Of a stretch of DNA of 46,022 nucleotides, positions 23,221 to 45,897 are shown piece after piece. The notes below the pieces were generated by a model that made no database searches, was not told the DNA's origin, and saw nothing but the letters and a program-made list of their open reading frames with translations. The stretch is from contig JAFGVM010000088.1 in assembly GCA_016937995.1 (NCBI GenBank), positions 1-46,022 on the forward strand. The letters run 5' to 3'. Every line of letters starts with the position of its first letter. The first letter of the stretch is position 1. Source of the DNA: Candidatus Delongbacteria bacterium. Lineage in GTDB: Bacteria > UBA4055. Made by a program: the position numbers and the translations under genes.

Positions 23221-23254
23221 GTTAATTTACTAGTTTCTCTCTTTTTAAATTTAT

Positions 23255-23317: not shown

Positions 23318-23851
23318 TTAGTCATTTGATGCAAGTGTAAATGCAATTGTATCAACGTAATCACCGGCTAATTTACCTGCAGTTTCAGCTGCGGTAACAT
23401 CCATATTCAAATCGAAGCTGTAAGCAGCTGTACCTGTTGTTGCAGTTCCTGTTGCGGTTATAGCAGCAGCACCTAATGTTAAAGGTGTTGTAGCGTTCAA
23501 TGTAAGACCTGTACCTAAAGTACCACCAACGTTAGCCATTGTAAGAGTGTAGGCCATTGTAGCACCGTTTGTTGCATTTGTAAGAACTCCGGTACCTGCA
23601 ACAATATCCAAAGTCCAACCTGCGATACTGTTGTCATCAATTGTGATTCCTGTTACAACATCAACATCCAAAGCGTTTCCTGCTACTACCGGAGCAGGTG
23701 TTCCTGTTGTTGTGTTAGTCGGGTAAGCACCTACTGTTAAAGCAGTAGTTAAAGCGATATTAGCCGCGATCTCACCGTTGCTGATCAATGCTGCGTTTGA
23801 AACGCTTGCTGCCAGTAAAACACCCAGAAGCACTGTCATCATTTTTTTCAT
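23318..23851 (-). CDS. Major pilin (chaperone-usher type)
   Basis: A 177-aa secreted protein: signal peptide ending VSNA, then an Ala/Thr/Gly-rich, Cys-free beta protein. The C-terminal strand ETAGKLAGDYVDTIAFTLASND has the alternating hydrophobics of a pilin donor-strand acceptor, and GITIDDNSIAGWTLDIV is shared with the second subunit. A GGGGAGAAAAC ribosome site and first place in the operon suit the main subunit. Members of the spore-coat-U-like (archaic) pilin group look most similar, from memory. Confidence 0.78.
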   Translation of the reverse strand: MKKMMTVLLGVLLAASVSNAALISNGEIAANIALTTALTVGAYPTNTTTGTPAPVVAGNALDVDVVTGITIDDNSIAGWTLDIVAGTGVLTNATNGATMAYTLTMANVGGTLGTGLTLNATTPLTLGAAAITATGTATTGTAAYSFDLNMDVTAAETAGKLAGDYVDTIAFTLASND

Positions 23852-29754: not shown

Positions 29755-30261
29755 TTATATCCTCTGTTTCATTTTATATCTCAATTTATTCTTAATTTCT
29801 CCCTGAAATATAAATCCTGCTTTCTCCAGAACTTTTATCGAACCTGAATTCATCTTGTCAACTATACCCCAAATTGAATTTAATTTCAACTCTTTTAATG
29901 ACCATTCTGTCATTGCCTGAACAGCCTCAGTAGCAAATCCTTTTCCCTGATGCTTATCTTCAATAGCATAACCGATCTCAACAATACAATCATAAGGGCT
30001 CAAACCTACATGTCCTATGAGCTCATTATTATCTTTAATCACAATTCCAAGAACAAAAGGGGTTTTATTTGGAGCTGGTATCTCATGATACTGCAGCATA
30101 AGATATTCAACTACCTGCTTCGCTTCTTCCTTGCTTGCATATACCTGATCTGGAATAAATTCCTTCATACCATCTTCCAGACTCATTAGATATACCTTAT
30201 GAACATCTTCGCTGGTAAATTTGCGGAGTATTAGTCTTGGTGTTGTAATTGGGTAGTTCAT
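29755..30261 (-). CDS. GNAT N-acetyltransferase (RimJ/RimL-like)
   Basis: A 168-aa acetyltransferase. The acetyl-CoA loop reads DKHQGKGFATEAVQAMTEW, and the family start TPRLILRKFTSEDVHKVY and end GSIKVLEKAGFIFQG are present. It probably acetylates an N-terminal or small-molecule amine. It overlaps the upstream zincin-flavodoxin gene by four bases (ATGA). Confidence 0.88.
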   Translation of the reverse strand: MNYPITTPRLILRKFTSEDVHKVYLMSLEDGMKEFIPDQVYASKEEAKQVVEYLMLQYHEIPAPNKTPFVLGIVIKDNNELIGHVGLSPYDCIVEIGYAIEDKHQGKGFATEAVQAMTEWSLKELKLNSIWGIVDKMNSGSIKVLEKAGFIFQGEIKNKLRYKMKQRI

Positions 30262-31967
30262 TTCCTTCTACACTCTTCAACAAGTTCTTCAATATTTTCT
30301 TTAGATGTAAAATCGGTAGGATTATCAAAAGAATCAAGCATTCCTTTTTCATCAGAAGTAAGAAATTCCTGCCTGCTAAGTTTCCATTTCATCAATCGCA
30401 TTATGATTGTATAAGGAAATTTCAATTTCTTAAAATCGAAACCTCCTCTAAGGTAAAATATTTTTATCGATTTTAACTGATCGTAAGTAAAATTCTTTCT
30501 TTTGATGTTATCAAGATCCTCCGGTTTACCTGTGGAAGCTCCTGTAGCAAAGACAATTATTTTTTTATCATCAAGTTTATGCATGTTGTTCGTTATAAAC
30601 TTAACACCGTTTATACCTGAAACATATAAACCGCCACCGTAAATTATAGTTCTGTACTTGGATAGATCATTTATTGATACCTGGGAATACTCTTTTAGGT
30701 CAGCTGTCAGCTCTTCGGATATCCATTCGGCATACTTTTTTACAAAACCGGACTTTGATCTGTATATCACTATTGTATTGATTTCCTTATCGAACCTGTT
30801 ACACTCAAATTTATTTTTATTTTTTTGCCTGAATCTATCAATCGTACAATCAAGTTTGTCTGTAAGATCTTTATATTTTTTGCAGTTCAGACAAATATCA
30901 GGAGTTTTAACAGATTCGATCTCTTTTACTAAAGCTTTATTTCGAATAAGACCTTCTTTCCATTCATCCAGCAGATCATCTATTTTTTGACCGAAGTAAT
31001 TCTCCTCATATTCCAGCCATGAACCCTCTTTAACTTCTTCCAAAGGAAAAAATAATCGTTTTAATTTTTCATATTCGAATTTATCCTCAAGAAAAAATGC
31101 GAAAGAAAGAGCTAAAGTATGTATATTAACTTCAGCTTCAGAAAATAACTTATTCCATTTTTCTTTCAAGTCAGAGAAATGAAAAACTCCTTTAACCGCT
31201 ATTTCACGAGCATAAAAATCAGCTGCCTTTCTTTTATCGTCACCCTCTTTATTGAATTTATCCTGAATAAGCTGTGCATATCCTTCAAGTAAAAGTTTAA
31301 AGGAATTCATTGTCAGATCATTCCCGAATTTTGTATTCTTAATGATCTCAGAATTCACCAGATGGAATGTTTCATGTACAATATTAGATACAATCAGCAA
31401 TGTATCATTTTTTTTCATATCTTTCACAGGTAAAAACATTTCAAATAGATCTCTGTTGTAAGAAGTTGGACCTATATGGTCCATTAATACAACTCTGATA
31501 ACAGGCGGTAATAGACCCTTCCATTCTTTAGCTATGAACCTGTCTATTTTATTAGTCTGTTCAAAGATCAAATTAGCTATCTCTTCCAAATTCATATCAT
31601 ATTTGATAGAAATATATTTACTTTGAAGAACTTTTCCCGAATCCTGATATTTATCGAAATCTTTATAAATAAAATAGTTTTTTGTATTTTTTACGAATTT
31701 CAGTTGTTTTATGACATTTGGAATATCGTTCAGGTGCATATAATGGAGTATTAATCCACCTTCATTCTTTCCCAGCTTTTCACATATTTCGCAATATTCT
31801 GATAAGGTTGGCTCGAATCTTCCCAACATTTGATAACAATCATTAAGTATAAAATATTCCTGACCCTGCTTTTCGAGTTGAGCAACGATCTTCTTCTCCA
31901 TTTTCTTGTAATTCTTAAAGAAGTTCCTGTTCCACTCTTCCATTTTTTCTAGATATTTATCTTTCAT
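30258..31967 (-). CDS. Zincin-like HExxH domain fused to a flavodoxin
   Basis: A 569-aa protein with two apparently unrelated halves. Residues about 1-340 have the zinc-peptidase motif IVHETFHLVNSE (H198, E199, H202), with LLEGYAQLI some 40 residues later as a possible third ligand (gluzincin pattern). A Cys-rich linker follows (CLNCKKYKDLTDKLDC, then FEC). Residues about 398-569 are a flavodoxin of the HemG/flavodoxin-5 type (IVIYRSKSGFVKKYAEWI, IIYGGGLYVSGING, IVFATGAST). No signal peptide is visible, so it should be cytoplasmic. Function unknown; a redox-linked protease or metallohydrolase is speculation. Confidence 0.7.
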   Translation of the reverse strand: MKDKYLEKMEEWNRNFFKNYKKMEKKIVAQLEKQGQEYFILNDCYQMLGRFEPTLSEYCEICEKLGKNEGGLILHYMHLNDIPNVIKQLKFVKNTKNYFIYKDFDKYQDSGKVLQSKYISIKYDMNLEEIANLIFEQTNKIDRFIAKEWKGLLPPVIRVVLMDHIGPTSYNRDLFEMFLPVKDMKKNDTLLIVSNIVHETFHLVNSEIIKNTKFGNDLTMNSFKLLLEGYAQLIQDKFNKEGDDKRKAADFYAREIAVKGVFHFSDLKEKWNKLFSEAEVNIHTLALSFAFFLEDKFEYEKLKRLFFPLEEVKEGSWLEYEENYFGQKIDDLLDEWKEGLIRNKALVKEIESVKTPDICLNCKKYKDLTDKLDCTIDRFRQKNKNKFECNRFDKEINTIVIYRSKSGFVKKYAEWISEELTADLKEYSQVSINDLSKYRTIIYGGGLYVSGINGVKFITNNMHKLDDKKIIVFATGASTGKPEDLDNIKRKNFTYDQLKSIKIFYLRGGFDFKKLKFPYTIIMRLMKWKLSRQEFLTSDEKGMLDSFDNPTDFTSKENIEELVEECRRK

Positions 31968-32538: not shown

Positions 32539-32811
32539 TTAATATACTTCCTTGTGCGTTCCAATAGATATTGGTATAATCTTATCATCTTCAATTATAA
32601 AATCTATTGTGATCCTGTATGTTATATTTATGGAAACAGAATAAGTTTCTGGTTGTTTATTTTCCAGTTTATGCAGTCTTAATGAAGGGTGATATGGATT
32701 TATTTCAAGAAGTTTGAAGGTTTTTGTATACTGTCTAACAATTTTCGGATGCTTTTTCAGAAATTTCTCAGATTTTTTCAGATACGGTTTTGTATAAATG
32801 ATTTCAGCCAC
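32539..32811 (-). CDS. RelE/ParE-family toxin
   Basis: A 90-aa toxin-like protein (YTKPYLKKSEKFLKKHPKIV, HPSLRLHKLEN, YSVSINITYRITIDFIIEDD, ISIGTHKEVY), the RelE/YafQ fold with a C-terminal His. By family it is a ribosome-dependent mRNA interferase or gyrase poison. It starts with GTG overlapping the antitoxin stop (GTGGCTGA). Confidence 0.88.
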   Translation of the reverse strand: MAEIIYTKPYLKKSEKFLKKHPKIVRQYTKTFKLLEINPYHPSLRLHKLENKQPETYSVSINITYRITIDFIIEDDKIIPISIGTHKEVY

Positions 32812-33061
32812 GGGTAATTCTCTTTACATGTTCTTCTACTGATTCTTTTATATAATCACCATCCTCAATTGCTTTTCGGGACTCTTTTATGGCTGCATCA
32901 AGTTCGTATTCCCGTAATTCGTTATACCTTTCAACTGAAATAACAATATATTTTGCTTTTCCTCTGACTGTTATGACAGCTTCACCATACTCGGAAGTTT
33001 CTTCTTCTATTAGAGAAACCCCTTTTGTCTTTAAATCATTTGCAGTAATATATTTATGCAT
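32804..33061 (-). CDS. Phd/YefM-family antitoxin
   Basis: An 85-aa antitoxin (MHKYITANDLKTKGVSLIEE, GEAVITVRGKAKYIVISVERYNEL), then an acidic disordered-looking tail that would wrap the toxin. The frame opens with GTG at 33067; GAGG at correct spacing favours ATG 33061. It forms the operon with the RelE-like toxin and probably represses it at the inverted repeat upstream. Confidence 0.88.
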   Translation of the reverse strand: MHKYITANDLKTKGVSLIEEETSEYGEAVITVRGKAKYIVISVERYNELREYELDAAIKESRKAIEDGDYIKESVEEHVKRITRG

Positions 33062-33071
33062 AAACACCTCG

Positions 33072-34375: not shown

Positions 34376-34447
34376 TCTTCTATATTGTTGGAATATAAAC
34401 ATAGCACTAGGTCAAATAGTGACCTTTTGCTATTAATTAATAAAAAA

Positions 34448-34468
34448 GGGACGATAAATAATCGTCCC
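34448..34468 (-). terminator. Terminator of the Mbx-like operon
   Basis: The stem GGGACGAT / ATCGTCCC (8 bp, loop AAATA) is followed on the minus strand by TTTTTTATTAAT. It lies 130 bp after the last operon gene and beyond the structured repeat at 34484-34605. Confidence 0.85.
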
Positions 34469-34483
34469 CAAATAAAATCCTGT

Positions 34484-34605
34484 AAAGGTTTAAATGTAAA
34501 GAAGTTCAAGGAAGAATATCTTTCTTTCAATAAGGAGCTTAGTTTACCTAAGTGACTTTGAAGAAAAATGTATTCTAACGCAGAAATTCAAAGCATTTAA
34601 CCTTT
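34484..34605 (-). repeat. Structured intergenic element, copy B
   Basis: A nested palindrome directly behind, and overlapping, the stop of the last Mbx-like gene. Outer arms AAAGGTTTAAATG / CATTTAACCTTT (one bulge), middle arms AGAATA / TATTCT, inner hairpin CTTAG-5-CTAAG. Core sequence (AAGGAGCTTAG, CTAAGTGACTT, flanking TTCAAG) matches copy A at 38334-38453, while the paired arms differ in sequence but stay complementary. Confidence 0.7.
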
Positions 34606-36363
34606 AAATTGTTTGTCGATGAAATACGCTGCCTTCTTTCCTGCAGCTATAGCTCTTATCGCATCATCTGGTCCAGTCTCACAATCTCCACCAGCATAGA
34701 TAGTATCCTGATTTGACTTAAGCGTATCAGTATTAACTTCAAACGTACCCCATCTTGTGAGCTTAATATCAAGATCTTTCATGATCTCAGGTTCAACCTT
34801 TTGACCAACAGCCATAATACAAGTATCAGCTATGATAGTATACTCAGAACCTTTAACAGGCTCAGGTCTTCTTCTACCACTCTTATCCGGCTCACCAAGT
34901 TCCATCTTAATACATTCAATAGCCAAGCGACCGTCTTTCTTCTCTATCTTAACAGGTGAAGTCAGTATCTGAATATCAACACCTTCTTCTTTAGCTTCAA
35001 TGATCTCGATCTCATCAGCAGGCATTTCTTTCTCAGTTCTTCTATACACAACCTTAACATCACTGCCAAGTCTAACAGATGAACGGCAACAATCCATAGC
35101 AGTATTACCACCACCAACGACAACAACATCTTTACCAAGATCAGGTCTCTCTCCCTTACCTATCTTCTCAAGGAATCCAACACCTGAAAGAACACCTTCA
35201 GTATCCAATCCTTCAATAGGCATTTCTGTACCAAGCTGAGCTCCGATACAAACAAATACAGCATCATTCTCTTTATGAATATCTTCAAGCATGATATCTT
35301 TACCAACTTTGGTGTTGTACTTAACCTCAACATCCTGCCTGATTATATAATCAATTTCTCTCTGAAGAACATCAGCTGGAAGCCTGTAATCAGGGATACC
35401 CCATTTAAGCATTCCACCAAGCTTATCATGCATTTCATAGATAACAGCATCATGACCTAAAGTTCTTAAATAATATGCAGCAGTAAGTCCTGCAGGACCT
35501 CCACCGATTATACCTACCTTCTTACCTGAAGCAGGTTTCGGTTTAAGATCGATTATCTCATCTTTTCTATCGTAAGTCTTGTCTCCGATATATCTCTTCA
35601 GCCATCTGATAGCAATAGGTTTACCTTCATGACCAACTGCACAAACAGTCTCACATTTTGCTGTACAGATCCTGCCACAGGCTTCAACCATTGGATTAGT
35701 CTGGAACATGATCCTGAGACCTTCGTCAAGCTTTCCATCTCTAATAGCTTTAATATATTGTGGTATATCCATATGTGTAGGACATGCTTGAACACAGATA
35801 CCGCAGTCTAAGCAACGGTTGGCTTCAATTATAGCTTGCTCATCTGTATAACCATCTTGAAATTCATCAAAAGTATTTTTTCTTTCATCGGCTTCCTGCT
35901 CCGGCATTTTCTCTCTTTCTCCGTTTACAAGCCAGGATTCATCTCCCCTTTTGTAACCTTTCTCAGATTCATTTGCCCAAGGTAATTCATCAATACCCGG
36001 AACGAATCTATAAACTTCAGGATCCTCGGAAAGCCAAGTGTAATCATTAGACATTCCAAGGGATGTAGTAGGACAGATATCCACACATAGAGCACACCAG
36101 CAGCATCTACCGTAATCGATCAAAGGCTTAAGACCGCTATTTCCCTTTGTAGCAACAAGTTCAGCTACTTCTACCATATCAATAGCTTCATTCTGGCAAA
36201 TTTCCTCGCAGGAACCGCAACCGATACATTTTTCAATATCGTTGGTATGAAAACCTCTGTAAAGATCAGCTGCTTTTCTGTTCACAGGATCCTTAATTGT
36301 ATATGGTTTCTCAAATGCTCTTTTCCAAGCATAGAATGGTGATATAATATCTTTTAAACTCAT
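34597..36363 (-). CDS. MbxN-like ferredoxin domain fused to GltD-like NAD(P)H flavoprotein
   Basis: A 588-aa fusion. The N-terminus is a NuoI/MbxN-type two-cluster ferredoxin (C46, C49, C52, C56 and C87, C90, C93, C97). From about residue 170 follows the glutamate-synthase-small-subunit/NfnB-type flavoprotein: extra cluster motif CLDCGICVQACP (C184-C194) and a second Cys group (CGRICTAKCETVC), FAD site GIIGGGPAG (284-292), and NAD(P)H site VVVVGGGNTAMD (413-424) with YRRTEKEMPA, which favours NADPH. It is the last gene of the 12-gene operon and would link NAD(P)H to the membrane complex. From memory Thermotoga has a similar GltD-like gene in its Mbx cluster, but as I recall not fused. A structured repeat overlaps the stop. 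Confidence 0.88.
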   Translation of the reverse strand: MSLKDIISPFYAWKRAFEKPYTIKDPVNRKAADLYRGFHTNDIEKCIGCGSCEEICQNEAIDMVEVAELVATKGNSGLKPLIDYGRCCWCALCVDICPTTSLGMSNDYTWLSEDPEVYRFVPGIDELPWANESEKGYKRGDESWLVNGEREKMPEQEADERKNTFDEFQDGYTDEQAIIEANRCLDCGICVQACPTHMDIPQYIKAIRDGKLDEGLRIMFQTNPMVEACGRICTAKCETVCAVGHEGKPIAIRWLKRYIGDKTYDRKDEIIDLKPKPASGKKVGIIGGGPAGLTAAYYLRTLGHDAVIYEMHDKLGGMLKWGIPDYRLPADVLQREIDYIIRQDVEVKYNTKVGKDIMLEDIHKENDAVFVCIGAQLGTEMPIEGLDTEGVLSGVGFLEKIGKGERPDLGKDVVVVGGGNTAMDCCRSSVRLGSDVKVVYRRTEKEMPADEIEIIEAKEEGVDIQILTSPVKIEKKDGRLAIECIKMELGEPDKSGRRRPEPVKGSEYTIIADTCIMAVGQKVEPEIMKDLDIKLTRWGTFEVNTDTLKSNQDTIYAGGDCETGPDDAIRAIAAGKKAAYFIDKQFKG

Positions 36364-36383: not shown

Positions 36384-36448
36384 TTAGAAGTAAGAAATTA
36401 GAAGTCAGAGGTTTAGCTGACCACTAACCACTAATCACTGACCACTAT
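36384..36448. repeat. Heptamer repeats between the last two Mbx-like genes
   Basis: Two runs of 7-mers: TTAGAAG TAAGAAA TTAGAAG TCAGAGG (36384-36411) and CCACTAA CCACTAA TCACTGA CCACTAT (36421-36448). The first recurs at 39099-39126; the second belongs with the CACTTAY arrays at 15507-15543 and 45898-46022. It overlaps the stop of the large-subunit gene. Confidence 0.7.
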
Positions 36449-37590
36449 CTCTCTATCTCCGGTGGACATGTCTGTAATGACACCATTAATCCGAATATGT
36501 CGGCATTGGTAACACCTTCTGCCATCTTCTCCAGTAAAGCCATTGCGTGAGTATAACTTGCACCACGCACATGAACTCTTCTAGGATATTCACTACCATC
36601 TGAGACCATGTAATATCCATATTCCCCTCTACCTGACTCAGCTTTAACATAAGTTTCACCTGCTGGAACTTTCCAATGAAGTATATCAGGTATCTTAGTT
36701 CGAACTGAACCTGTTCTTGGCATTTTCGCTAATATCTGTCTAATAAGGTCAACTGAAAGAAGAACTTCCTTCTTTCTTAGAACAGTTCTTTCATAAACAT
36801 CACCTACAGTGCCTGTAGTTGGCTCGAAATCCAACTGATCGTAGATCAGATATGGATGATCCTTTCTTACATCATATTTTACACCTGAAGCTCTTGCAGT
36901 TGTACCTGTAACACCAAAAGGTTTGATCCATTCTTTTGGAAGAACTCCAAGACCAACCGCTCTTGATTTAAATACATAATTGTTAAACATTACTTTATCA
37001 ATATCATACATCAACTTTTCAGTCTTGACCAGCACCTTTTCCAGTCTGTCCTCAAAACCTGCAGGAGGTTCATGCCTTACTCCACCTGGTAACATATACA
37101 TGTGATATATTCTTCCACCTGTTAGTTCTTCGAAAAGATCAAGTATAAGATCTCTGTGTGCAACAGACCATTGCCCTATAGTGCCAAGTCCGAAAGAACC
37201 TGCCTGGCCACCTATACCCATTATTGTAGCACCTAATCTTGCCATTTCAAGGTTCAAAGCTCTTAACCACTTAGCTCTCTCAGGTATCTCTATACCTGCA
37301 AGATCTTCAGCTGCAGTAGCAAAAAGATATTCGTTAGTATCAGGCTCTGGAACACAGATCCTGCATACGATCGGAAAACATTTGATGTACTTTCTTCTTT
37401 CCATCAGTTTCTCAAAACCTCTATGAAGATAACCGACGTGTGTATTAAGTTGCATTATCTCGTCACCTTCAAGCAATATCTCAAGAGCCATATTACCTGT
37501 TACTCCCGGATGCTGAGGTCCCTGCCATATCTTGACGTACTTTCCGGACTTAAGGTCCAGATCTTTAGTATCATTCCAAATTGGTCGCAT
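36445..37590 (-). CDS. NuoD/MbxL-like large subunit with degenerate NiFe site
   Basis: A 381-aa homologue of complex I 49-kDa and group 4 NiFe-hydrogenase large subunits (WQGPQHPGVTGNM, HVGYLHRGFEKLMERR). In group 4 hydrogenases the four nickel-binding cysteines lie in VCGIC and DPCxxC. Here the first motif is intact as VCRIC (C76, C79), but the second is SLQTCPPEIER: C375 is kept and the second cysteine is Glu378. Three of four ligands remain, so a working NiFe centre is unlikely. This places it with Mbx-type or complex-I-type subunits rather than hydrogen-evolving Mbh. No hydrogenase maturation genes are present in the window. Confidence 0.9.
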   Translation of the reverse strand: MRPIWNDTKDLDLKSGKYVKIWQGPQHPGVTGNMALEILLEGDEIMQLNTHVGYLHRGFEKLMERRKYIKCFPIVCRICVPEPDTNEYLFATAAEDLAGIEIPERAKWLRALNLEMARLGATIMGIGGQAGSFGLGTIGQWSVAHRDLILDLFEELTGGRIYHMYMLPGGVRHEPPAGFEDRLEKVLVKTEKLMYDIDKVMFNNYVFKSRAVGLGVLPKEWIKPFGVTGTTARASGVKYDVRKDHPYLIYDQLDFEPTTGTVGDVYERTVLRKKEVLLSVDLIRQILAKMPRTGSVRTKIPDILHWKVPAGETYVKAESGRGEYGYYMVSDGSEYPRRVHVRGASYTHAMALLEKMAEGVTNADIFGLMVSLQTCPPEIER

Positions 37591-37626
37591 AATATCTTCT
37601 TATGTTGATTTATATTATTTTTATTT

Positions 37627-37699
37627 GTCATTGCGAGGATTTTCATAAAATCCGTGGCAATCTTATTTTATGGTTTTACGGGTGAATAATGATTCACCC
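37627..37699. repeat. Palindromic repeat element between mbxL and mbxK
   Basis: GTCATTGCGAGGATTTTCAT starts an imperfect palindrome (ATTGC..GGATTTT-CAT-AAAATCC..GCAAT, 37627-37663). A second hairpin GGGTGAAT-AATG-ATTCACCC lies at 37680-37699. The first looks like the widespread TCATTGCGAG...GCAATCT intergenic repeats known in many genomes. No T-run marks a terminator, and the operon continues through it. Confidence 0.6.
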
Positions 37700-37709: not shown

Positions 37710-38285
37710 TTATTTTGAATTATCACGAAATACTTTCGTGATGCTCTTCTTTACTTCTTCTTCTACAGGATACATCTTCTCTGCCATTTGTTCCGTTGGA
37801 TCCTTCTTGGTTCTTCCTTCTCTAGGGAAGTAAGTTTCTTCAGAGTATTTCTTAGTATCGAAATCTTTTCTCATCGGAGGAATAGTATCCCAGCCTTCGA
37901 GTACGAATGGATCATCAACTCTTGGACATCCCGGAAAATCTATCCCGAACATTTCTTTCAATTCCCTTTCATAGACCCTTGCAGCAGCCCATAGCTCATT
38001 GATACTGGTCATTGTAGGGTTTTCTCTGTCGATATATACTCTGATACAGGCATCATTATTCAGGTCATAGTTACGGAGCAAATATGTCAATTGGAACTTG
38101 CCGTCTTCTATGTAATCTACACATGATATCATTGTCAGCTGATCATACTTCTCAAATTCCTTCAAATACAAGATTACACCTTCAATATCGATCTTCTCTG
38201 CTGTAAAGAATACCTGATTCGATTTATGCTCGTTGATGTCTTTGATATTGAATTTTGAAGCCAGTCTTTCGATCATATCTTTCAT
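37710..38285 (-). CDS. NuoC/MbxK-like 30-kDa subunit
   Basis: A 191-aa subunit of the complex-I peripheral arm. The signature ERELKEMFGIDFPGCPR is present, as is the N-terminal fold (YLKEFEKYDQLTMISCVDY, FQLTYLLRNYDLN). It has no cofactor and bridges the large subunit to the ferredoxin subunit. A long spacer with the structured repeat separates it from the upstream gene. Confidence 0.93.
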   Translation of the reverse strand: MKDMIERLASKFNIKDINEHKSNQVFFTAEKIDIEGVILYLKEFEKYDQLTMISCVDYIEDGKFQLTYLLRNYDLNNDACIRVYIDRENPTMTSINELWAAARVYERELKEMFGIDFPGCPRVDDPFVLEGWDTIPPMRKDFDTKKYSEETYFPREGRTKKDPTEQMAEKMYPVEEEVKKSITKVFRDNSK

Positions 38286-38333: not shown

Positions 38334-38453
38334 AAAGTGCATTAAATAAAGGAGTTCAAGAAAGAGTTGTTTATTTCGAAAAGGAGCTTAGATTAACTAA
38401 GTGACTTAAGAAAAAACGACTCTGACGCCGAAATCCGAAATTTAATGTGCTTT
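38334..38453 (-). repeat. Structured intergenic element, copy A
   Basis: Three nested stems: outer AAAGTGCATTAAAT / ATTTAATGTGCTTT (14 pairs, two G-T), middle AGAGTTGTTT / AAACGACTCT (38363-38372, 38414-38423), inner CTTAG-5-CTAAG (38387-38401). It overlaps the stop of the NuoB-like gene. It shares the core with copy B (34484-34605), but the arms have diverged in a compensating way. Confidence 0.75.
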
Positions 38454-39078
38454 ACCAGTTGTAGTCAGGCATATTCCAGTCTTTGATCACCTTCTTCTGA
38501 TTCTCCTTATACCACTGAAAATCCCTTGCATACTTATTCGCACCTTCAGCTCTTCCCTCTTTGATGATCTCCTTCATTTTTTTAAAACCTGCTATGAGAG
38601 ATTCCGGTCTAGGCATACAACCTGCTACATACACATCAACCGGTAAATACTGATCAAGTCTGTTGATAGTGTTATAACTGTCAAAGTACATACCACCGTT
38701 GATAGTACAGCTTCCAAGTCCCATTACGAATTTCGGGTTCTGCATCTGCTCATAAGACCTTACTATTCTCTTCAAAGTCTTGACCGAAGCATATCCGCTT
38801 ATTATAAATAAACTGGATTGTCTCGGGGTCGGTCTCGGAGCCATTCCAAATCTTGAAATATCATATCGTGCAGTGTATAAAGGTCTCATTTCTATAGCTC
38901 CACAACCTGTACCAAAAGCCAGCACCCACATAGAATTAGCCTGAGCCCAGTTATAGAATTTTTGAACTATTTTATTGTTTATAGGCGCAACTTCCTTTGG
39001 TAAAGCTTCACAGAAAAATTCATTCTGTAATTCCTTTGCTTTATCGTCCGGTTTACTGTCCTGACCTATTGTAATCAT
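38452..39078 (-). CDS. NuoB/MbxJ-like small subunit with altered cluster ligands
   Basis: A 208-aa homologue of complex I PSST/NuoB (LAFGTGCGAIEMRPLYTARYD, VMGLGSCTINGGMYFDSY, VDVYVAGCMPRPES). The proximal [4Fe-4S] cluster in NuoB is held by CC...C...C. Here the double Cys is C59-G60, with C124 and C154 retained, so only three of the four expected cysteines are present. Nucleotides GGT TGT GGA confirm the Gly codon. C23 lies too far N-terminal to be an obvious substitute. The subunit sits next to the large subunit and should hold the last cluster of the chain. Confidence 0.9.
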   Translation of the reverse strand: MITIGQDSKPDDKAKELQNEFFCEALPKEVAPINNKIVQKFYNWAQANSMWVLAFGTGCGAIEMRPLYTARYDISRFGMAPRPTPRQSSLFIISGYASVKTLKRIVRSYEQMQNPKFVMGLGSCTINGGMYFDSYNTINRLDQYLPVDVYVAGCMPRPESLIAGFKKMKEIIKEGRAEGANKYARDFQWYKENQKKVIKDWNMPDYNW

Positions 39079-39151: not shown

Positions 39152-40066
39152 TTAGAATGAATACATTAACACTGCTATTATACCGATTATCGTTGGTATC
39201 TTTAAGAAATATCTTACTGAATTTTCCAGAGTGAACCTTGGATTAACAACACCCATCAACACTGTTGTCATATAAAGTAGGAAAGTCTTTATTACCATCT
39301 CAGGTATACTTGTAGCTCCACCGAAGAACAGGTTCATGAATAATACCAGTTTAGCAGATGCGAAAAATGCTCTGTTCGCCTGCATATATCCAAGAAATGT
39401 TGATTGAAATTCGGTCGGAGGACCGATAGGGATCTCCTGTGGTGCAATATGAAGATCGAACGGAGAGTGCATCATCATACCTAAGAATGCTAACATCCCC
39501 GCTATAGTAGCGACCGGATTCGTTATCATTGTCCAGTTCATAAATCCACCTTGCTGGGCAGCAACTATCTCAGTAATTGAAAGTGTCTGATATTGAGCAG
39601 CAAGTGCTATGATAGCCAATGCAAATGGAACTTCAGATACTGTTACCTGTGCCAGTCCTCTCATAATACCCATTGGTGAGTATGGATGTCCACTTTCCGC
39701 AGCTCCGAGAGCCATACCCAGCTGTCCGAAGAATATGAAGTAAACAACTAACAGCAGGTCACCCGAGAAACTGAAATTCTGTAGCCATACAGATCCGAAT
39801 ACTGCAGGAATAAATAAGTATAAGCCAACACCACCTACAAGTCTGAAGACTGGGCCTAAGTAGAACATGATACCATGAGATATTGCCGTTCTCATTGAAA
39901 ATACTTTAACCAGGTTGATATAAGGCTGCCATACAGGTGGTCCGAATCTACCGTGAGCTCTTGCAACTATTTTCATCACTAGACCTCTTAAAACCATCCC
40001 GTAGTTGAAGATGAGTAGTAGTGACAGAATTGCGTAAATTATTCTTTGTATAGTAAAATTTTCCAT
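39152..40066 (-). CDS. NuoH/MbxM-like membrane subunit
   Basis: A 304-aa subunit with about eight membrane helices that couples the peripheral arm to ion translocation. Family blocks: RAHGRFGPPVWQPYINLVKVF, AAESGHPYSPMGIMRGLAQV, and SPFDLHIAPQEIPIGPPTEF with acidic residues of the E-channel. It overlaps the antiporter gene (TAATG). Confidence 0.93.
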   Translation of the reverse strand: MENFTIQRIIYAILSLLLIFNYGMVLRGLVMKIVARAHGRFGPPVWQPYINLVKVFSMRTAISHGIMFYLGPVFRLVGGVGLYLFIPAVFGSVWLQNFSFSGDLLLVVYFIFFGQLGMALGAAESGHPYSPMGIMRGLAQVTVSEVPFALAIIALAAQYQTLSITEIVAAQQGGFMNWTMITNPVATIAGMLAFLGMMMHSPFDLHIAPQEIPIGPPTEFQSTFLGYMQANRAFFASAKLVLFMNLFFGGATSIPEMVIKTFLLYMTTVLMGVVNPRFTLENSVRYFLKIPTIIGIIAVLMYSF

Positions 40067-43000
40067 TATTTAACTCCTACAGTAATAAAGAACAATATCA
40101 GTCCATACATCAATATCCAGAATGCATAAGTTTGACCATTACCGGTATAGATCTTTCTTAAAGAATCTCCAATCGTATGTGCTGAATTTGACACATTCTT
40201 CCAGAAAGTTTTCACTCTCGGGTTCACTAAGAAACCTAAAGCTCTGTAGTATGGTTTATAAAATTGATACGCAAAGTGTGTTAACTCCGGTGTTTCGGGT
40301 CTTTCTCCTGCAAATACTATATTGAATTGTTTTACTTTCTGAACTTTTGGAGCTTTTATCAATAGCAAAACTGTAAGACCAATGAAGAGTACCATTACGA
40401 TATTCATTACTACAAATCCGTTCCAGTATCCAAGAGAACTAAACGCAGTATCACCTACCCATGATAAGCTTTCTCCAAAAATTGGTTTTACCGCAAAAGT
40501 TATCATGTCGAGTAACAATTTCGGTTTCATTGAGAATGCCATTATAATTATTATGAATATATACTGAGGTATTATGAACCATACAGGTGCTTCTTTAACG
40601 TCTTTGAACTCAGTCTTTGCCTGTCCAAGGAAAATGGTGTGTATCAATCTGAAACAGTAAAGGAAAGCAACTGTCGATGCAAAGAAAGCAACACCTGTCT
40701 GAAGATACCAGCCTTTTTCTATCAATGCTTCATAAAGTAACCATTTTGCTCCGAAACCGGTCAATGGTGGGACTCCGGATATTGCTATGATTCCGAACAT
40801 CACTGCTGTGTAAGATAATGGCATTTTTTTGATAAGACCACCCATCTTATACATTTTTGAAGTACCTGTTCTGTAAATAACACCTGCTATTGCTAAGAAA
40901 AGAATTCCTTTTATAAGCATGTGATTTACAACCTGATACATTCCAGCCGTCCATCCAAGTCCTGACATAGTTGCCATTGCAAGAATTATATATCCAACCT
41001 GCCCCATACTGGAATAAGCTAAAAGCTTTTTAGCATCCTCCTGGAATATTGCTATCATTGTACCACTTATTGCAGTAATAGCACCTATCCATCCAAGAAC
41101 ATAAGCAATATCTATCTTACCTATCTTTGGAATTCCCATAATAAGGATCAATATCACAAAACCAAATATTCCTGCTTTTGACAATATTGAGGACAAAAAT
41201 GCAGTTGTATCATCCTCTGCTTTTTTATAAGCACTCCCGATCCATGTATGTAATCCTATACCAGCTATTTTCACTAGAAACCCAATCGATATTAAGATAA
41301 AAACAATACTTTTATTTTCTTCAATTGCTCCGAGCAAAGAAATCGGTAAGACTATTTTATGATGCATTTCAGAAAAAGCATAACCGAATCCTATCAATAT
41401 TAGGAATGCTCCGCCAAGAGAGAAAATTACATATCTTAAAGCTGCTTTCTGAGCTTTTTTTCCTCTCATAATAAGGAAATACGATGATACAGTCATAATT
41501 TCCCATGCAAAGAAGAATTGCAGTGTGTTCTTTGCTTCAACCATTGCAACAAGCGAACCTATCATAAGCATAAGTAACGGAAAGAAACCAACTCTTTTTC
41601 CTTTGCTATGCATTGTTGCTATAATTAAGAAAAATGACCCTCCAAGGAATATAGTATTGAAAAACAAATTAAACCCCGCCTGATCTGGCAAGAAATAATA
41701 AGCATAAACTGCTATACCTGACATACTTATGAATCCTTTGATCTTAGCAGGTAAGAATGGAAGATAAAACAATGCCAGACCAACTGTGAAAGGAAGGTAA
41801 TAAATTGGAGCTATTGCTTCATTTGTCCATGAATAATAAACAGCTATGGTCAATAAAAGTGAAGTAACAAGAAATACTGCCAGATTCTTAGAAACTGTCA
41901 TATCAAATTTAACTTCTTCAGTGTCTTCACCTTTAAGTGCATATCCTAACCATCTGAGCATATATACTGCTTCTATCAGGGAACCGGCAAGTAAGAACCA
42001 TATCCATGTAAAATTCTTGGTAGCACCCCAAAAAAGTACTAAATTCCATTTTCCCCAGAATCCAGGAAAAGGAGGTAGACCAATCAGAGCCAATACAAGA
42101 ATTATAAAAGGTATAAGAATGATCTTATTATTCTTGATCATACCCCAATTTTTATATTTTTCACTCTTTACTATACCTGCGATCCAGAACAATCCGGCTT
42201 TTGCAAAGAAATGATTTATAAATAACGGTATAAGTACGAGCATAAATATCTCATCTGCTGCACCGGTTCGATATCCCCAGGCACCTACTGAAAGAATTAA
42301 TCCCATCTGAGCAACTGAAGAATATCCTAATATCCTTCTTGGATTTTTTTGCTTAAGACCCATCAGATTTGAAACAAAGAATGTTAACATTCCGATCACT
42401 GCTGTCATTGACAACAGATCTTTATTCATCATCGGGAAAGTTTTATATATAGCAAAGAAGACACCTCCGGTACCGATGGCAGCTACAAGACCAGTAAGTC
42501 CTGGAGCAACACCTTCATAAGCATCAATTGCCCATCCGTTTGAAGGAAATTGTTTCATCTCTATTATCAATGAAAATAATACTAAGAAAAGACCGATCGT
42601 TAGTATCTTTATATTTGCAACTGCAGGAATAATTTTGACCATTTCGTCAATATTTAATGTCCCTGTCACTGAATAAAGCATTATAATCCCAAGCAGCAGG
42701 AAAACTGAAGCTATACCACCAGCTATCATATATTTAAAACCTGCGGATAAAGATTTTAATTTCAGATCCATACCTATCAGTGAATAAGTTGCGATTGAAG
42801 TAATTTCAAGGAAAACAAATAAATTAAAAATATCTCTGGTCATTACTAAACCGTTCAGTCCAAGCACCATTAACAAAAACAGTACGAACGAACGGGTTCC
42901 TGTTTCGGCCATTTGCCTGAACATATATATCGCACCGAAAAGTGCCATAAAATTTATACTGCCTGTAAAAATTGCTTCAAACATTCCCATTTGAAGATTA

Positions 43001-43215
43001 ATTGAAATTGGAGGTTTAAAACCTGCAGTAAATATCATTACTGATACTTGATCACCGATCAAAAAACCAGTCAACCATTGATAACTTATTGCACACACCG
43101 AAATCAAAGCTGCAAAGAATATTGCTCCGGTCAGTTTTGTTCCACCTTTGCTGAAAGAAGGCAATAGAAAACCTACTCCGAGTAAAATTGCTACTATATA
43201 TATTGGATTTACCAT
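40066..43215 (-). CDS. Fused double antiporter-like subunit (MbxH-MbxH' / MrpD-MrpD)
   Basis: A 1049-aa membrane protein made of two complete NuoL/M/N-MrpD modules in one chain. The first (about 1-500) has the TM5 glutamate in FNLFVFLEITSIATYSL and the TM7 lysine in IEMKQFPSNGWAIDAYEGVAPG. The second (about 510-950) has LQFFFAWEIMTVSSYFL and IGFLVKIAGIGLHTWIGSAYKKAEDDTT. Both keep the Glu-Lys pair of the ion path, so both may pump Na+ or H+. In the archaeal Mbx (Mbs) complex, as I recall, these are two separate subunits, H and H'. A tandem duplication covers its start codon region (43205-43274). Confidence 0.92.
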   Translation of the reverse strand: MVNPIYIVAILLGVGFLLPSFSKGGTKLTGAIFFAALISVCAISYQWLTGFLIGDQVSVMIFTAGFKPPISINLQMGMFEAIFTGSINFMALFGAIYMFRQMAETGTRSFVLFLLMVLGLNGLVMTRDIFNLFVFLEITSIATYSLIGMDLKLKSLSAGFKYMIAGGIASVFLLLGIIMLYSVTGTLNIDEMVKIIPAVANIKILTIGLFLVLFSLIIEMKQFPSNGWAIDAYEGVAPGLTGLVAAIGTGGVFFAIYKTFPMMNKDLLSMTAVIGMLTFFVSNLMGLKQKNPRRILGYSSVAQMGLILSVGAWGYRTGAADEIFMLVLIPLFINHFFAKAGLFWIAGIVKSEKYKNWGMIKNNKIILIPFIILVLALIGLPPFPGFWGKWNLVLFWGATKNFTWIWFLLAGSLIEAVYMLRWLGYALKGEDTEEVKFDMTVSKNLAVFLVTSLLLTIAVYYSWTNEAIAPIYYLPFTVGLALFYLPFLPAKIKGFISMSGIAVYAYYFLPDQAGFNLFFNTIFLGGSFFLIIATMHSKGKRVGFFPLLMLMIGSLVAMVEAKNTLQFFFAWEIMTVSSYFLIMRGKKAQKAALRYVIFSLGGAFLILIGFGYAFSEMHHKIVLPISLLGAIEENKSIVFILISIGFLVKIAGIGLHTWIGSAYKKAEDDTTAFLSSILSKAGIFGFVILILIMGIPKIGKIDIAYVLGWIGAITAISGTMIAIFQEDAKKLLAYSSMGQVGYIILAMATMSGLGWTAGMYQVVNHMLIKGILFLAIAGVIYRTGTSKMYKMGGLIKKMPLSYTAVMFGIIAISGVPPLTGFGAKWLLYEALIEKGWYLQTGVAFFASTVAFLYCFRLIHTIFLGQAKTEFKDVKEAPVWFIIPQYIFIIIIMAFSMKPKLLLDMITFAVKPIFGESLSWVGDTAFSSLGYWNGFVVMNIVMVLFIGLTVLLLIKAPKVQKVKQFNIVFAGERPETPELTHFAYQFYKPYYRALGFLVNPRVKTFWKNVSNSAHTIGDSLRKIYTGNGQTYAFWILMYGLILFFITVGVK

Positions 43216-43274
43216 TTTAATTCCTTGTAATCGTTAATTGGATTTACCATTTTAGTTCCTTGTAATCATTAATT
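43205..43274 (-). repeat. 35-bp tandem duplication of a stop/start junction
   Basis: Two adjacent 35-bp copies (43205-43239 and 43240-43274, two mismatches) span the MrpC stop and the antiporter start. The inserted copy makes a 13-codon ORF (43209-43250, MVNPINDYKELKW) that joins the first residues of the downstream protein to the last residues of MrpC. Its stop overlaps the true antiporter start as ATGGTAA. Confidence 0.9.
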
Positions 43275-43606
43275 GACAATGATCTCTTCTGTTGATATAA
43301 TCTTATTACAAAGGTCAGCATCAATGCATTCACTGCCACTCCGATAACGATCGCAGTTAATACTAATGCCTGGGGTACCGGATCAACTATTAAAGAAGAT
43401 ACTTTACTAAGCTCTACTGCTGAATCCAGGATCGGAGCTGTTCTGCCTTCAATAAATCCGAAAGATACCATAACAAGCTGAACACCGGTCTCCACTATTG
43501 CTAAACCAAGAATTATTTTGATCATATTCTTCTGTGTCAACATACCCCAGAATCCTATAATTATAAGGGCAAATCCTATTATATGAACTATCGTGGTTAT
43601 ATTCAT
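43244..43606 (-). CDS. mrpC: MrpC/MbxG-like (NuoK homologue) subunit
   Basis: A 120-aa NuoK/MnhC-type subunit with three membrane helices (IIGFALIIIGFWGMLTQKNMIKIILGLAIVETGVQLV, DPVPQALVLTAIVIGVAVNAL). The conserved intramembrane Glu (VETG) and the DPVPQALVLTAIVIG block are typical of Mrp C subunits. It overlaps mrpB by four bases (ATGA). Confidence 0.94.
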   Translation of the reverse strand: MNITTIVHIIGFALIIIGFWGMLTQKNMIKIILGLAIVETGVQLVMVSFGFIEGRTAPILDSAVELSKVSSLIVDPVPQALVLTAIVIGVAVNALMLTFVIRLYQQKRSLSINDYKELKW

Positions 43607-44307
43607 TCTAAGTCTCCCTTCATATTGTCTAATATACTCGCTAATTCAGTGCCTACTTTCAATCCAATCAATGTATAAATAACAGGTATTGCTCCTGCAC
43701 TTAAAATACTGCCAAAAGTACCAAGAGATAATATTCTGTTATCCAGAAAATTATCTGCTCCGATCATAACGAGACCTAATATCCCGATAAGAACATAAGC
43801 AAATCCTGATAATGATTCTAACCAGCCGAATACATTATGATTGATCTTATAAGATGTGTCTGCAAGAAATAGAAGCATTATTGCAGAAGCTATTACTGCA
43901 CCACCCTGAAAACCTCCACCGGGAGTTAAATGTCCATTTAAAAATATATATATTCCAAAAATAATTATCATTGGAGCAAGCAGTGTAGATCCTGTAAGTA
44001 AAATTTCACTGGATTCTCTTTTCTTTTTACCCGGATCAATTTTCTTCTTCTTTCTTCTTAACAGAACGGCAATTCCTGTAGCTGCTATGAATAATACTGC
44101 AACCTCACCAAGTGTATCTAATCCTCTATATGTTACTATTATAGCCGTTACAATATTCTGAGCTCCAAGTTCCTGATTCCCGCTTCTTTCGGCATATTCT
44201 TTTCCTACTCCTTTTAAAGCAGTAGCTTCTTCAATATTGTTCACTATAATAAAAAATACAAAAACAAACCCCAGTAATAATATAGCTGAGAAAATTCTTT
44301 TAATCAT
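43603..44307 (-). CDS. mrpB: MbxE-MbxF fusion (MrpA C-terminal part plus MrpB)
   Basis: About 234 aa from ATG 44307, which overlaps the previous stop as ATGATTAA; the longer frame to 44373 is not needed. The N-terminal ~85 residues match MbhE (VTAIIVTYRGLDTLGEVAVLFIAATG). The rest is MrpB/MbhF (STLLAPMIIIFGIYIFLNGHLTPGGGFQGGAVIA). In archaeal Mbh these are separate genes. It forms part of the Na+/H+ antiporter module. Confidence 0.9.
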   Translation of the reverse strand: MIKRIFSAILLLGFVFVFFIIVNNIEEATALKGVGKEYAERSGNQELGAQNIVTAIIVTYRGLDTLGEVAVLFIAATGIAVLLRRKKKKIDPGKKKRESSEILLTGSTLLAPMIIIFGIYIFLNGHLTPGGGFQGGAVIASAIMLLFLADTSYKINHNVFGWLESLSGFAYVLIGILGLVMIGADNFLDNRILSLGTFGSILSAGAIPVIYTLIGLKVGTELASILDNMKGDLE

Positions 44308-44557
44308 TTTCTTCCTCCACATCTTTTGTTTTGTGAAGTGCATATAAAAATACCAAAGTAGATAATCCTGCACCTATAGCAGCTTCTGTCATTGCAACAT
44401 CAGGTGCCTGCATCAGTAGATACAATATACTTGCGAATAAACTGACTACTCCTACTGCGATGATCGAAGATATCAGATCCTTCACATGCATTGCTAATAC
44501 AGCCGCAATGATCATTGCTAAACCCATCAGTATGAAAATGCCCTGTTGTAATTCCAT
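44300..44557 (-). CDS. MbhD-like subunit (MrpA domain, DUF4040)
   Basis: An 85-aa three-helix protein equal to the MbhD segment of MrpA (IILMGLAM..., YLLMQAPDVAMTEAAIGAGLSTLVFLYALHKT). The DVAMTEAAIGAG block is diagnostic. The start region is duplicated in tandem (44529-44610). Confidence 0.92.
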   Translation of the reverse strand: MELQQGIFILMGLAMIIAAVLAMHVKDLISSIIAVGVVSLFASILYLLMQAPDVAMTEAAIGAGLSTLVFLYALHKTKDVEEEND

Positions 44558-44610
44558 TAGTCTACCTCCAGTATGAAGATACCTTGTGCTAATTCCATTA
44601 GTCTACCTCC
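44529..44610 (-). repeat. 41-bp tandem duplication of a stop/start junction
   Basis: Two adjacent 41-bp copies (44529-44569 and 44570-44610, several mismatches) span the MrpG stop, ribosome site GGAGG and the MbhD start. The extra copy makes a 13-codon ORF (44557-44598, MELAQGIFILEVD) that fuses the start of MbhD to the end of MrpG. It begins in the MrpG stop and ends in the MbhD start (TAATG both times). Confidence 0.9.
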
Positions 44611-44978
44611 ACTTCAGTATTCTCATTTAGCTTGTCAGTCACCACTACGTCGATATTTTCTTTCTCTTTCAGCTTATCAGTTACAGAACCTTTCGTTAGA
44701 GGAATTCCTTTGAAGTGTGCTGCTCTTGCTAAAGCATGACTTGAAATAGGATTTGTTAAAGCTATGAACATTATTATTACCAGTATCTGACCGATCCATT
44801 CATAGTGACAGATGCCTATTCCTAATAATGTTAAAATTGTTCCTAAAGTCGTTGCTTTTGTTCCTGCCTGCATTCTGTTATAAAGATCCGGCATTCTAAA
44901 TACTCCCAAAGCTCCAAGAAATAAGAATATTGAACCGATTAATGTTATTATTGATCCTAAAATTCTGTACCATTCCAT
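44598..44978 (-). CDS. mrpG: MrpG/MbxC-like subunit
   Basis: A 126-aa MnhG-type protein with three membrane helices (LIGSIFLFLGALGVFRMPDLYNRMQAGTKATTLG, ALTNPISSHALARAAHFKG). The FRMPDLYNRMQAGTKATTLG block is diagnostic. An acidic C-terminal tail (KENIDVVVTDKLNENTEVEVD) is longer than usual. Its ribosome site GGAGGG lies in the mrpF end. Confidence 0.95.
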   Translation of the reverse strand: MEWYRILGSIITLIGSIFLFLGALGVFRMPDLYNRMQAGTKATTLGTILTLLGIGICHYEWIGQILVIIMFIALTNPISSHALARAAHFKGIPLTKGSVTDKLKEKENIDVVVTDKLNENTEVEVD

Positions 44979-44979
44979 T

Positions 44980-45249
44980 TTACAGCCCTCCTTCTAAATG
45001 ACGGGCTACTGCAACTACACCAATGAAACTCAAGATCGCATAGACCATTCCTACATCCAAAAATATTATTCTGGATGACATACAGGCAATTAGTACTATA
45101 AGTGATATAGAAATGACAGTAAATGTATCTAACGCAACAACTCTGTCAGCCATACTTGGACCTTTTATAAGTCGTAATGTTGCCAATATTATCCCTGCCG
45201 ATACAAAATAGGTGGATACTTGGAACAATATCTCAGGTAAATTAGTCAA
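44980..45249 (-). CDS. mrpF: MrpF/MbxB-like subunit
   Basis: An 89-aa MnhF-type protein with three helices (RLIKGPSMADRVVALDTFT, FLDVGMVYAILSFIGVVAVARHLEGG). The start is TTG, overlapping the mrpE stop as TTGACTAA and preceded by a strong GGAGGTGATC site, so the unusual start is well supported. Confidence 0.95.
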   Translation of the reverse strand: MTNLPEILFQVSTYFVSAGIILATLRLIKGPSMADRVVALDTFTVISISLIVLIACMSSRIIFLDVGMVYAILSFIGVVAVARHLEGGL

Positions 45250-45730
45250 AGATCACCTCCAAATATTTTTCAAAACTTGCTACGATTTTCTCTGTTGCAG
45301 CCTTTTCATCTTTATTCGTTACATCTATCCAGTGTATATATAATGTATCTCCGTCTATATCCACTGTTAAAGTGCCGGGAGTCAATGTTATTGAATTTGC
45401 CAATACCATTCTACCCATTGCTGTTTTCAATTTTGTTTTCACTGTAACAATTCCGGGATTTATACGGATAACAGGTTTTATTACTCTTAAGGCTACATCC
45501 AAATTGGCTTTAATGATCTCAATGAATAAATAAAATATATACCAGATGGAATAAATTATTTTTTTAGGGTTAAGTATTGGTGATCTGAGATAATTTCTAA
45601 AAACAACACTTACAATTAATGAGAAACCAAACATAATCATAATATTATTCAGATCTTTTGTCCCTGTCCAAATAAAATAAAACAGTGTGAAGGCGATCGT
45701 TGAAAACAGTATTTTTAAAGTTTTATCCAT
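45242..45730 (-). CDS. mrpE: MrpE/MbxA-like subunit
   Basis: A 162-aa MnhE-type protein: two N-terminal membrane helices, then a cytoplasmic domain with NSITLTPGTLTVDIDGDTLYIHWID, the MrpE signature. GAGGATAT precedes the ATG. It is the first gene of the 12-gene operon in order E-F-G-(MbhD)-B-C-D/D-NuoH-NuoB-NuoC-NuoD-NuoI/GltD, the same order as archaeal mbx operons as I recall them. Confidence 0.95.
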   Translation of the reverse strand: MDKTLKILFSTIAFTLFYFIWTGTKDLNNIMIMFGFSLIVSVVFRNYLRSPILNPKKIIYSIWYIFYLFIEIIKANLDVALRVIKPVIRINPGIVTVKTKLKTAMGRMVLANSITLTPGTLTVDIDGDTLYIHWIDVTNKDEKAATEKIVASFEKYLEVIFD

Positions 45731-45897
45731 ATATATCCTCTTATCGTTATTATTTTCATTTTCTATTTGTCATCCTGATCCCGATCAATCGGGACAGGAT
45801 CTATCTTTTAATTCGCTTTTACTCTCTGTCATGCTGAACTTGTTTCAGTATCTATCTTTTAATTCACTTTAGACCCTGAAATAAATTCAGGGTGACG
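45731..45897. repeat. Cluster of three related palindromic repeats upstream of mrpE
   Basis: Two direct copies, 45769-45820 and 45828-45871, share GTCAT.CTGA...CAG.ATCTATCTTTTAATTC with different palindromic centres. A third lies inverted at 45873-45896 (ACCCTGAA-ATAAA-TTCAGGGT). The stems differ in sequence but remain complementary. They resemble the CTGAACTTGTTTCAG-type intergenic repeats seen in Bacteroidota-like genomes. No gene is present, and no clear operon promoter could be recognised. Confidence 0.65.

What the first reader, a model, noticed from the sequence alone, without database searches (positions are those of the whole stretch)
34597..36363. Ferredoxin subunit of the Mbx-like complex fused to a GltD/NfnB-type NAD(P)H module
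The last subunit of the operon contains both the NuoI-type clusters and a full flavoprotein with its own cluster and NADPH-type site. This gives the complex a built-in NAD(P)H port that canonical Mbx lacks, implying reversible ferredoxin-NADPH exchange driven by ion gradient.
Basis: partly seen in the sequence, partly recalled or inferred. Interest (0 to 1): 0.55.

Follow-up and report, generated by a model that had tools for sequence, protein, structure and literature searches.

The report
Sulfur-type ion pump with NADPH arm
A membrane ion-pump complex related to respiratory complex I and to a sulfur-reducing archaeal enzyme carries, welded to its ferredoxin-like subunit, an NADPH-oxidising module; the same weld was found on every bacterial relative sampled, so these bacterial pumps may run on NADPH or NADH rather than, or as well as, on ferredoxin.

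Summary
Window 34597-36363 (minus strand, 588 aa) is one protein: an MbsN/NuoI-like ferredoxin domain (two 4-Cys motifs) plus a GltD/NfnB-like flavoprotein (two more 4-Cys motifs, FAD and NADP(H) folds). It ends a complete 12-gene MBX/MBS operon. The fusion is not peculiar to this genome: 38 of 39 distinct fusions lie directly behind the MBX NuoD-like gene (the other is cut by a contig end), and every MBX NuoD-like gene found in samples of two phyla belongs to a genome with the fusion. The inferred function is only partly supported. A YRR motif supports NADP(H). But ferredoxin and NADPH entry points sit on one subunit, upstream of the coupling cluster, so simple ferredoxin-NADPH exchange would bypass the pump. 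The small subunit keeps exactly the three cysteines of P. furiosus MBS's catalytic cluster; nickel and quinone ligands are absent. Most likely it is an ion-pumping NADPH dehydrogenase reducing sulfane sulfur or a similar acceptor. New here: the family splits cleanly into a YRR (NADPH) and an xLE (presumed NADH) clade, and this genome holds one operon of each. Archaeal MBX operons with a separate sudA gene were described in 2010, so this is a variant. Function is untested.

The parts
34597..36363 (-). MbxN-GltD fusion (588 aa): residues 1-~143 MbsN/NuoI-like with Cys46/49/52/56 and 87/90/93/97; ~150-588 GltD/NfnB-like with Cys184/187/190/194 and 229/233/237/241, Lys256, FAD fold, YRR 440-442
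36445..37590 (-). MbxL (NuoD-like): RICVPEPD and CPPEIER, near those of MbsL; no Ni-ligand pairs; T31/V80 where Nqo4 has quinone residues H38/Y87
37710..38285 (-). MbxK (NuoC-like, Complex1_30kDa)
38452..39078 (-). MbxJ (NuoB-like): three cluster cysteines C59, C124, C154 = MbsJ C28, C93, C123; MbsJ C25 is Gly56 here
39152..40066 (-). MbxM (NuoH-like)
40066..43215 (-). MbxH-H' double antiporter-like subunit in one chain (1049 aa); second half matches 6u8y_X
43244..43606 (-). MbxG (MrpC-like)
43603..44373 (-). MbxE/F (MbhE + MnhB domains; the true start may lie further in)
44300..44557 (-). MbxD-like, 85 aa (identified by position and conservation across loci)
44598..44978 (-). MbxC (MrpG-like)
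44980..45249 (-). MbxB (MrpF-like), by position and conservation across loci
45242..45730 (-). MbxA (MrpE-like)
34447..34469 (-). terminator-like hairpin (9 pairs, then a T-rich tail) about 130 bases after the fusion gene
   Evidence: 13 such sites found against 5.5 expected in the region; consensus match only

Best explanation
The operon encodes an ion-translocating NADPH dehydrogenase of the complex I superfamily, built on the MBS/MBX core. NADPH is oxidised at the FAD of the fused GltD arm. Electrons pass one at a time through two [4Fe-4S] clusters of that arm and two [4Fe-4S] clusters of the NuoI-like domain to the single cluster in MbxJ. That cluster has only three cysteine ligands, as in P. 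furiosus MBS, and reduces sulfane sulfur (polysulfide) or a similar small or hydrophobic acceptor in the MbxL/J/M chamber. Its turnover drives the two antiporter-like domains and the Mrp module. Reduced ferredoxin may feed the same wire at the NuoI-like domain. Shown by sequence: the subunits and their order, the one-chain fusion, 16 conserved cluster cysteines, the YRR motif, Lys256, the three-cysteine MbxJ, loss of nickel and quinone residues. Inferred: cofactor content, electron direction, acceptor, ion pumped.
For: Complete cluster in P. furiosus mbx order. Best PDB relatives of L, J and the antiporter chain are MBS chains 6u8y_L, _J and _X, and the best match of the N-terminal part of N is 6u8y_N. 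MbxJ keeps exactly the ligands of the MBS catalytic cluster (C28, C93, C123) and lacks C25; three Cys are invariant in 19 of 19 aligned J proteins. PMC7684303 (passages) reports that this cluster reduces polysulfide and that C25 and the two MbsL Cys are not needed. Nqo4 H38/Y87 equivalents are Thr/Val. YRR 440-442 is a published mark of NADP(H) preference (PMC7596348, passages). Lys256, invariant in 39 of 39, aligns with a Lys of StnC where NfnB has Glu; I take it for StnC Lys170, whose enzyme has a non-bifurcating FAD (PMC10482914 section 9). 38 of 39 fusions adjoin mbxL. T. maritima, the only one of 14 control genomes with the full-length family, raises mbxA transcript 4.36-fold on sulfur (PMC9431562, passages).
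Against: No activity was measured. NADPH to polysulfide offers only a small potential drop (general knowledge), so little ion pumping per electron. The own genome's sulfur chemistry was not surveyed. A UbiA-family gene is present, so quinones are not ruled out. The AlphaFold model is poor over the NuoI-like part (pLDDT under 50 for residues 29-171), so cluster spacing could not be checked. In MBS the donor is ferredoxin, and the N domain may still bind it.
Confidence: 0.55

Rival explanations
1. One reading: a reversible, ion-gradient-driven ferredoxin:NADP+ oxidoreductase (an Rnf-like machine for NADP).
For: Both entry points may exist on subunit N. P. furiosus MBX was formerly thought to be a ferredoxin:NADP+ oxidoreductase (PMC3035292 and PMC6349859, passages).
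Against: Both ports lie on the same subunit upstream of the J/L coupling cluster, so exchange would bypass the pump; P. furiosus MBS is reported to reduce sulfur (PMC7684303); the own genome has an RnfC-type gene and a Stn-like operon.
Confidence: 0.17
2. A dual-donor enzyme: ferredoxin and NADPH both feed the sulfur-reducing cluster, the stronger reductant paying for pumping and NADPH tuning redox balance.
For: N keeps the MbsN-like domain that carries electrons from ferredoxin in MBS, with all eight Cys.
Against: Electrons from ferredoxin would be expected to leak to NADP+ through the same wire; no separate ferredoxin gene is among the 12 genes of the cluster.
Confidence: 0.18
3. A complex I-like NADPH:quinone oxidoreductase.
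For: Complex I-type subunits throughout; one UbiA-family gene in the genome.
Against: Both quinone-headgroup residues are replaced (T31, V80) as in MBS; MbxJ has no tandem Cys (Gly60 invariant in 19 of 19).
Confidence: 0.05
4. A soluble NADPH-dependent enzyme merely encoded beside the mbx genes.
For: GltD-type modules occur in many soluble enzymes.
Against: The ferredoxin half is MbsN-like from residue 6, no separate mbxN gene lies in the 12-gene cluster, and the fusion takes its place in 38 of 39 loci.
Confidence: 0.03

Closest known systems
MBS (formerly MBX), Pyrococcus furiosus, PDB 6u8y
   Same: Subunit set and order, L and J active-site motifs, three-Cys proximal cluster, two antiporter-like pumps, Mrp module
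   Different: MbsN is 208 aa with no flavoprotein; donor is ferredoxin; MbsH and MbsH' are two chains
Dehydrogenase-linked MBX of Desulfurococcaceae (Thermosphaera, Staphylothermus, Desulfurococcus; PMC3035292, PMC2678158)
   Same: An MBX-type operon with a SudA (NfnB/GltD-like) gene in or near it, suggested in 2010 to oxidise NADPH with protons or sulfur as acceptor
   Different: SudA is a separate gene; archaeal; likened by its authors to formate hydrogenlyase-type clusters; not compared here at sequence level
NCBIfam NF010590 / PRK13984 'putative oxidoreductase' (present in Thermotoga maritima)
   Same: Same full-length architecture; the second copy of this genome scores 910 bits, T. maritima is over the 946-bit cut-off
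   Different: The window protein scores 617-619 bits, under the cut-off, and belongs to the other (YRR) clade
StnC of Sporomusa ovata StnABC and NfnABC large subunits (8oh5, 9bov, 9n5u)
   Same: GltD module with NADPH site, Lys at the cluster (StnC: non-bifurcating FAD), fused to an Fe-S wire of complex I origin
   Different: Bifurcating enzymes without a membrane arm; in StnC the wire is NuoG-like, not NuoI-like
NfnB (NfnL) of NfnAB
   Same: GltD fold and YRR motif
   Different: Glu ligand and bifurcating FAD; works with NfnA; soluble

Membership tests
MBS/MBX family | Mrp-type subunits, two antiporter-like domains, NuoH/B/C/D/I-like subunits in the order A-B-C-D-EF-G-H-H'-M-J-K-L-N | tested here: met
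   (P. furiosus order: recall, and PMC2678158 Table 4 passage)
MBS/MBX family | L subunit with one Cys of each former Ni pair (C85/C385) and no second Cys | tested here: met
   C79 in RICVPEPD, C375 in CPPEIER
MBS/MBX family | Proximal cluster in J with three Cys ligands | tested here: met
   (sequence only)
MBS/MBX family | Sulfane-sulfur reductase activity; ferredoxin as donor | not testable with these tools
   needs assay
Respiratory complex I | Quinone residues H38/Y87 and tandem Cys in NuoB | tested here: not met
Respiratory complex I | NuoE/F/G dehydrogenase arm in the operon | tested here: not met
   none among the 12 operon genes; a GltD arm takes its place. NuoE/F-like genes elsewhere in the genome belong to a Stn-like operon
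Group 4 [NiFe] hydrogenase | Two CxxC pairs for Ni | tested here: not met
   CVPE and CPPE
NfnAB electron-bifurcating enzyme | Glu ligand of the FAD-proximal cluster in NfnB; NfnA partner | tested here: not met
   Lys256 in 39 of 39; no NfnA-like gene among the operon proteins scanned
GltD-type NADP(H) flavoprotein | YRR phosphate-binding motif, FAD and NAD(P) folds | tested here: met
   meaning of the motif from PMC7596348
PRK13984 equivalog (NF010590) | Score of at least 946 bits | tested here: not met
   617.4 bits, 618.9, though aligned over almost the full model
Dehydrogenase-linked MBX of Desulfurococcaceae | Separate SudA gene beside an MBX/FHL-type cluster | tested here: not met
   the module is fused into N; archaeal sequences were not compared

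The most novel reading that the evidence does not exclude
Bacterial MBX complexes form a distinct class of complex I relatives: NAD(P)H:sulfane-sulfur (or like) oxidoreductase ion pumps that gained a nicotinamide arm by one gene fusion, independently of the NuoEFG arm of complex I, and then split into an NADPH clade (RR) and an NADH clade (LE). This bacterium carries one of each, and T. maritima MBX, modelled in print as ferredoxin-fed, is in truth NADH-fed.
Probability: 0.35. Interest if true: 0.72.

Novelty: new variant of a known kind. Interest (0 to 1): 0.52.

Why it matters
If true, an old branch of the complex I superfamily acquired its own NAD(P)H arm by a simple fusion, a second solution to the problem that NuoEFG solves in mitochondria and most bacteria. 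It would change the energy budgets of sulfur-dependent anaerobes such as Thermotoga, whose MBX is modelled in print as ferredoxin-fed (PMC9431562), and would give a cultivable test case for how a nicotinamide-linked respiratory pump evolves.

Tried and rejected
Stand-alone enzyme: rejected by gene order. Hydrogenase: rejected by missing Ni ligands. Quinone reductase: disfavoured, but UbiA was found in 13 of 13 genomes of the phylum, so the genomic test of 'no quinones' failed. Nfn-type bifurcation at the fused FAD: disfavoured by Lys256. Structure of the fusion: AlphaFold2 with 10 rows gave mean pLDDT 63, residues 29-171 under 50, so inter-cluster distances could not be judged; Foldseek re-found NfnABC/NfnB/StnC folds. 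The first tree dropped 8 of 39 rows through a narrow pattern and labelled some rows by a failed pattern; it was repeated with all 39 rows, with the same split. A paper search for TM1217/TM1216/TM1205 gave nothing useful.

In-print check: ten full-text searches of the open library; no description of an MbxN-GltD fusion was seen in the listings or in the passages read. Subscription papers are not held, so priority cannot be claimed.

Full report
OBSERVATION. The ORF at 34597-36363 (minus strand) is real and uninterrupted, 588 aa. Its N-terminal ~143 residues match MbsN, the ferredoxin-like subunit of P. furiosus MBS (6u8y_N, E 1.2e-23), and residues ~150-588 match GltD/NfnB/StnC-type flavoproteins. 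Pfam gives Fer4_7, Fer4_20 and Pyr_redox_2 in that order. The closest NCBIfam model is NF010590/PRK13984 ('putative oxidoreductase'), matched almost end to end but under its cut-off (617 against 946 bits).

OPERON. Twelve genes on the same strand, 45730 down to 34597, encode MrpE, F, G, an 85-aa MbxD-like protein, MbhE+MnhB, MrpC, a 1049-aa double antiporter-like subunit, and NuoH-, B-, C-, D-like subunits, then the fusion. Distances between neighbours range from an overlap of 74 to a gap of 166 bases. Pfam was run on 10 of the 12; the 85-aa and 89-aa proteins were named by position and conservation. A terminator-like hairpin follows about 130 bases downstream. The window is one whole contig, so what lies beyond MrpE is unknown. 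Relatives place the genome in Candidatus Delongbacteria (tree labels).

IS IT LINKED TO MBX? The single scan of genome contigs gave 12 loci; 9 are full fusions, and all 9 follow the NuoD-like gene. The other three (L021-L023) match only the GltD part and show no mbx gene in the stretch held. Whole-genome searches with the 588-aa protein at E 1e-115 or better gave 13 of 247 (phylum of L018), 4 of 235 (phylum of L020) and 12 of 40 (phylum of L014) genomes; two of the 13 (G261, G110) match only the GltD part. In the own phylum 6 of 13 genomes hold a full-length fusion. I kept 39 distinct fusions: the window, the second copy, and 37 others (repeat fetches of one place were counted once). 38 adjoin the NuoD-like gene; in the other (L044) the contig begins 286 bases before it, and the NuoD-like gene of that genome lies near the end of another contig. 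Of 28 stretches read (two overlap), 19 show all twelve subunits in the same order; the others are short or begin or end inside the cluster. Searching instead with the NuoD-like alignment at strict E-values found 11 of 247 genomes in the first phylum, the same 11 that hold fusions, and 3 of 348 in the phylum of L022, all three with a fused N next door. So no unfused bacterial MBX was met. More distant MBX forms below these thresholds would have been missed.

THERMOTOGA. At E 1e-140 the only one of 14 named control genomes with NF010590 is T. maritima, over the curated cut-off. Its place in the mbx operon was not seen here. PMC9431562 (passages) models T. maritima MBX as ferredoxin-fed and reports mbxA up 4.36-fold on sulfur; the fusion suggests a nicotinamide donor.

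ACTIVE SITE. MbxJ aligns without gaps to MbsJ: C59, C124, C154 are MbsJ C28, C93, C123, and MbsJ C25 is glycine. Across 19 J proteins exactly these three Cys are invariant; 6 of 19 keep a Cys at the C25 position. In MBS that cluster has three Cys ligands and is held to reduce polysulfide itself, C25 and the two MbsL Cys being dispensable (PMC7684303, passages). MbxL keeps RICVPEPD and CPPEIER; 14 of 16 rows keep the first Cys and 13 of 16 the second, in keeping with dispensability. Complex I quinone residues H38 and Y87 are Thr31 and Val80. The second antiporter half matches 6u8y_X.

THE FUSED ARM. Sixteen cysteines, four 4-Cys groups, are invariant in 39 of 39. Lys256, also 39 of 39, aligns with a Lys of StnC and NfnABC chains, where NfnB chains have Glu (alignments). 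I take it for StnC K170, a ligand of the cluster next to a non-bifurcating FAD (PMC10482914 section 9); the residue numbers were matched by eye. This argues that the arm is a plain NADP(H) dehydrogenase.

TWO CLADES. The NADP motif YRR (residues 440-442; PMC7596348 passages) is present in 24 of 39; the other 15 all read x-Leu-Glu there. On the tree the two states are two sides of one branch (support 100/100; 0 of 500 shuffles as low; the root is only a midpoint). An acidic residue there commonly favours NAD(H) (general knowledge, untested here). The own genome holds one complete operon of each type: the window (YRR) and G000:C66 (LE; L085).

MECHANISM. In MBS the N subunit carries electrons in from ferredoxin, and the coupling element is the J/L/M/H' interface (PMC7684303, passages). 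An NADPH arm fused to N therefore feeds the same wire. An RnfC-type gene and a StnABC-like operon exist for such exchange. A [FeFe] hydrogenase gene is present as well. The likeliest reading is an NADPH dehydrogenase pump ending at a sulfane-type acceptor. The acceptor is the weakest step.

KNOWN OR NEW. Thermosphaera aggregans and relatives have MBX-type operons with a separate sudA gene, suggested in 2010 to oxidise NADPH with protons or sulfur (PMC3035292, passages; see also PMC2678158, passages). The present system differs by the one-chain fusion, the MBS-type active site and the two cofactor clades. No description of the fusion was seen in ten searches of the open library; subscription literature is not covered.

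Noticed in passing
G000:C66 (L085:790-11747): A second complete MBX operon of the same genome with an LE-type fused N (46% identical). Its Mrp half is 76.6% identical in DNA to the window's (window 42637-45794), against 65-67% elsewhere, suggesting cassette exchange or conversion between the copies.
   Followed up: partly
L010:3956-10312: A StnABC-like operon: 1214-aa GltD-NuoG-type protein, NuoF-like and NuoE-like proteins; probably a bifurcating transhydrogenase.
   Followed up: partly
L011:5524-9984: A 1486-aa protein with several flavoprotein and ferredoxin domains, of unclear role.
   Followed up: no
L018, L019, L020 (NuoD-like gene): The remnant Ni-site cysteines of MbxL are replaced here (Ala and/or Tyr), a further step of loss compared with MBS.
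   Followed up: partly
window 30258-31967: 569-aa protein that by eye joins a HExxH protease-like part to a C-terminal flavodoxin-like part; no search was run.
   Followed up: no
window 32539-33067: By eye a RelE/YoeB-like toxin and a prevent-host-death-like antitoxin pair; no search was run.
   Followed up: no
window 22690-23851: Two tandem, similar, apparently secreted small proteins (176 and 177 aa) of unknown role.
   Followed up: no
window 45758-45895 and 37619-37670: Short intergenic repeats that also occur near the second MBX operon (L085:14193-14279, 15894-15941).
   Followed up: no
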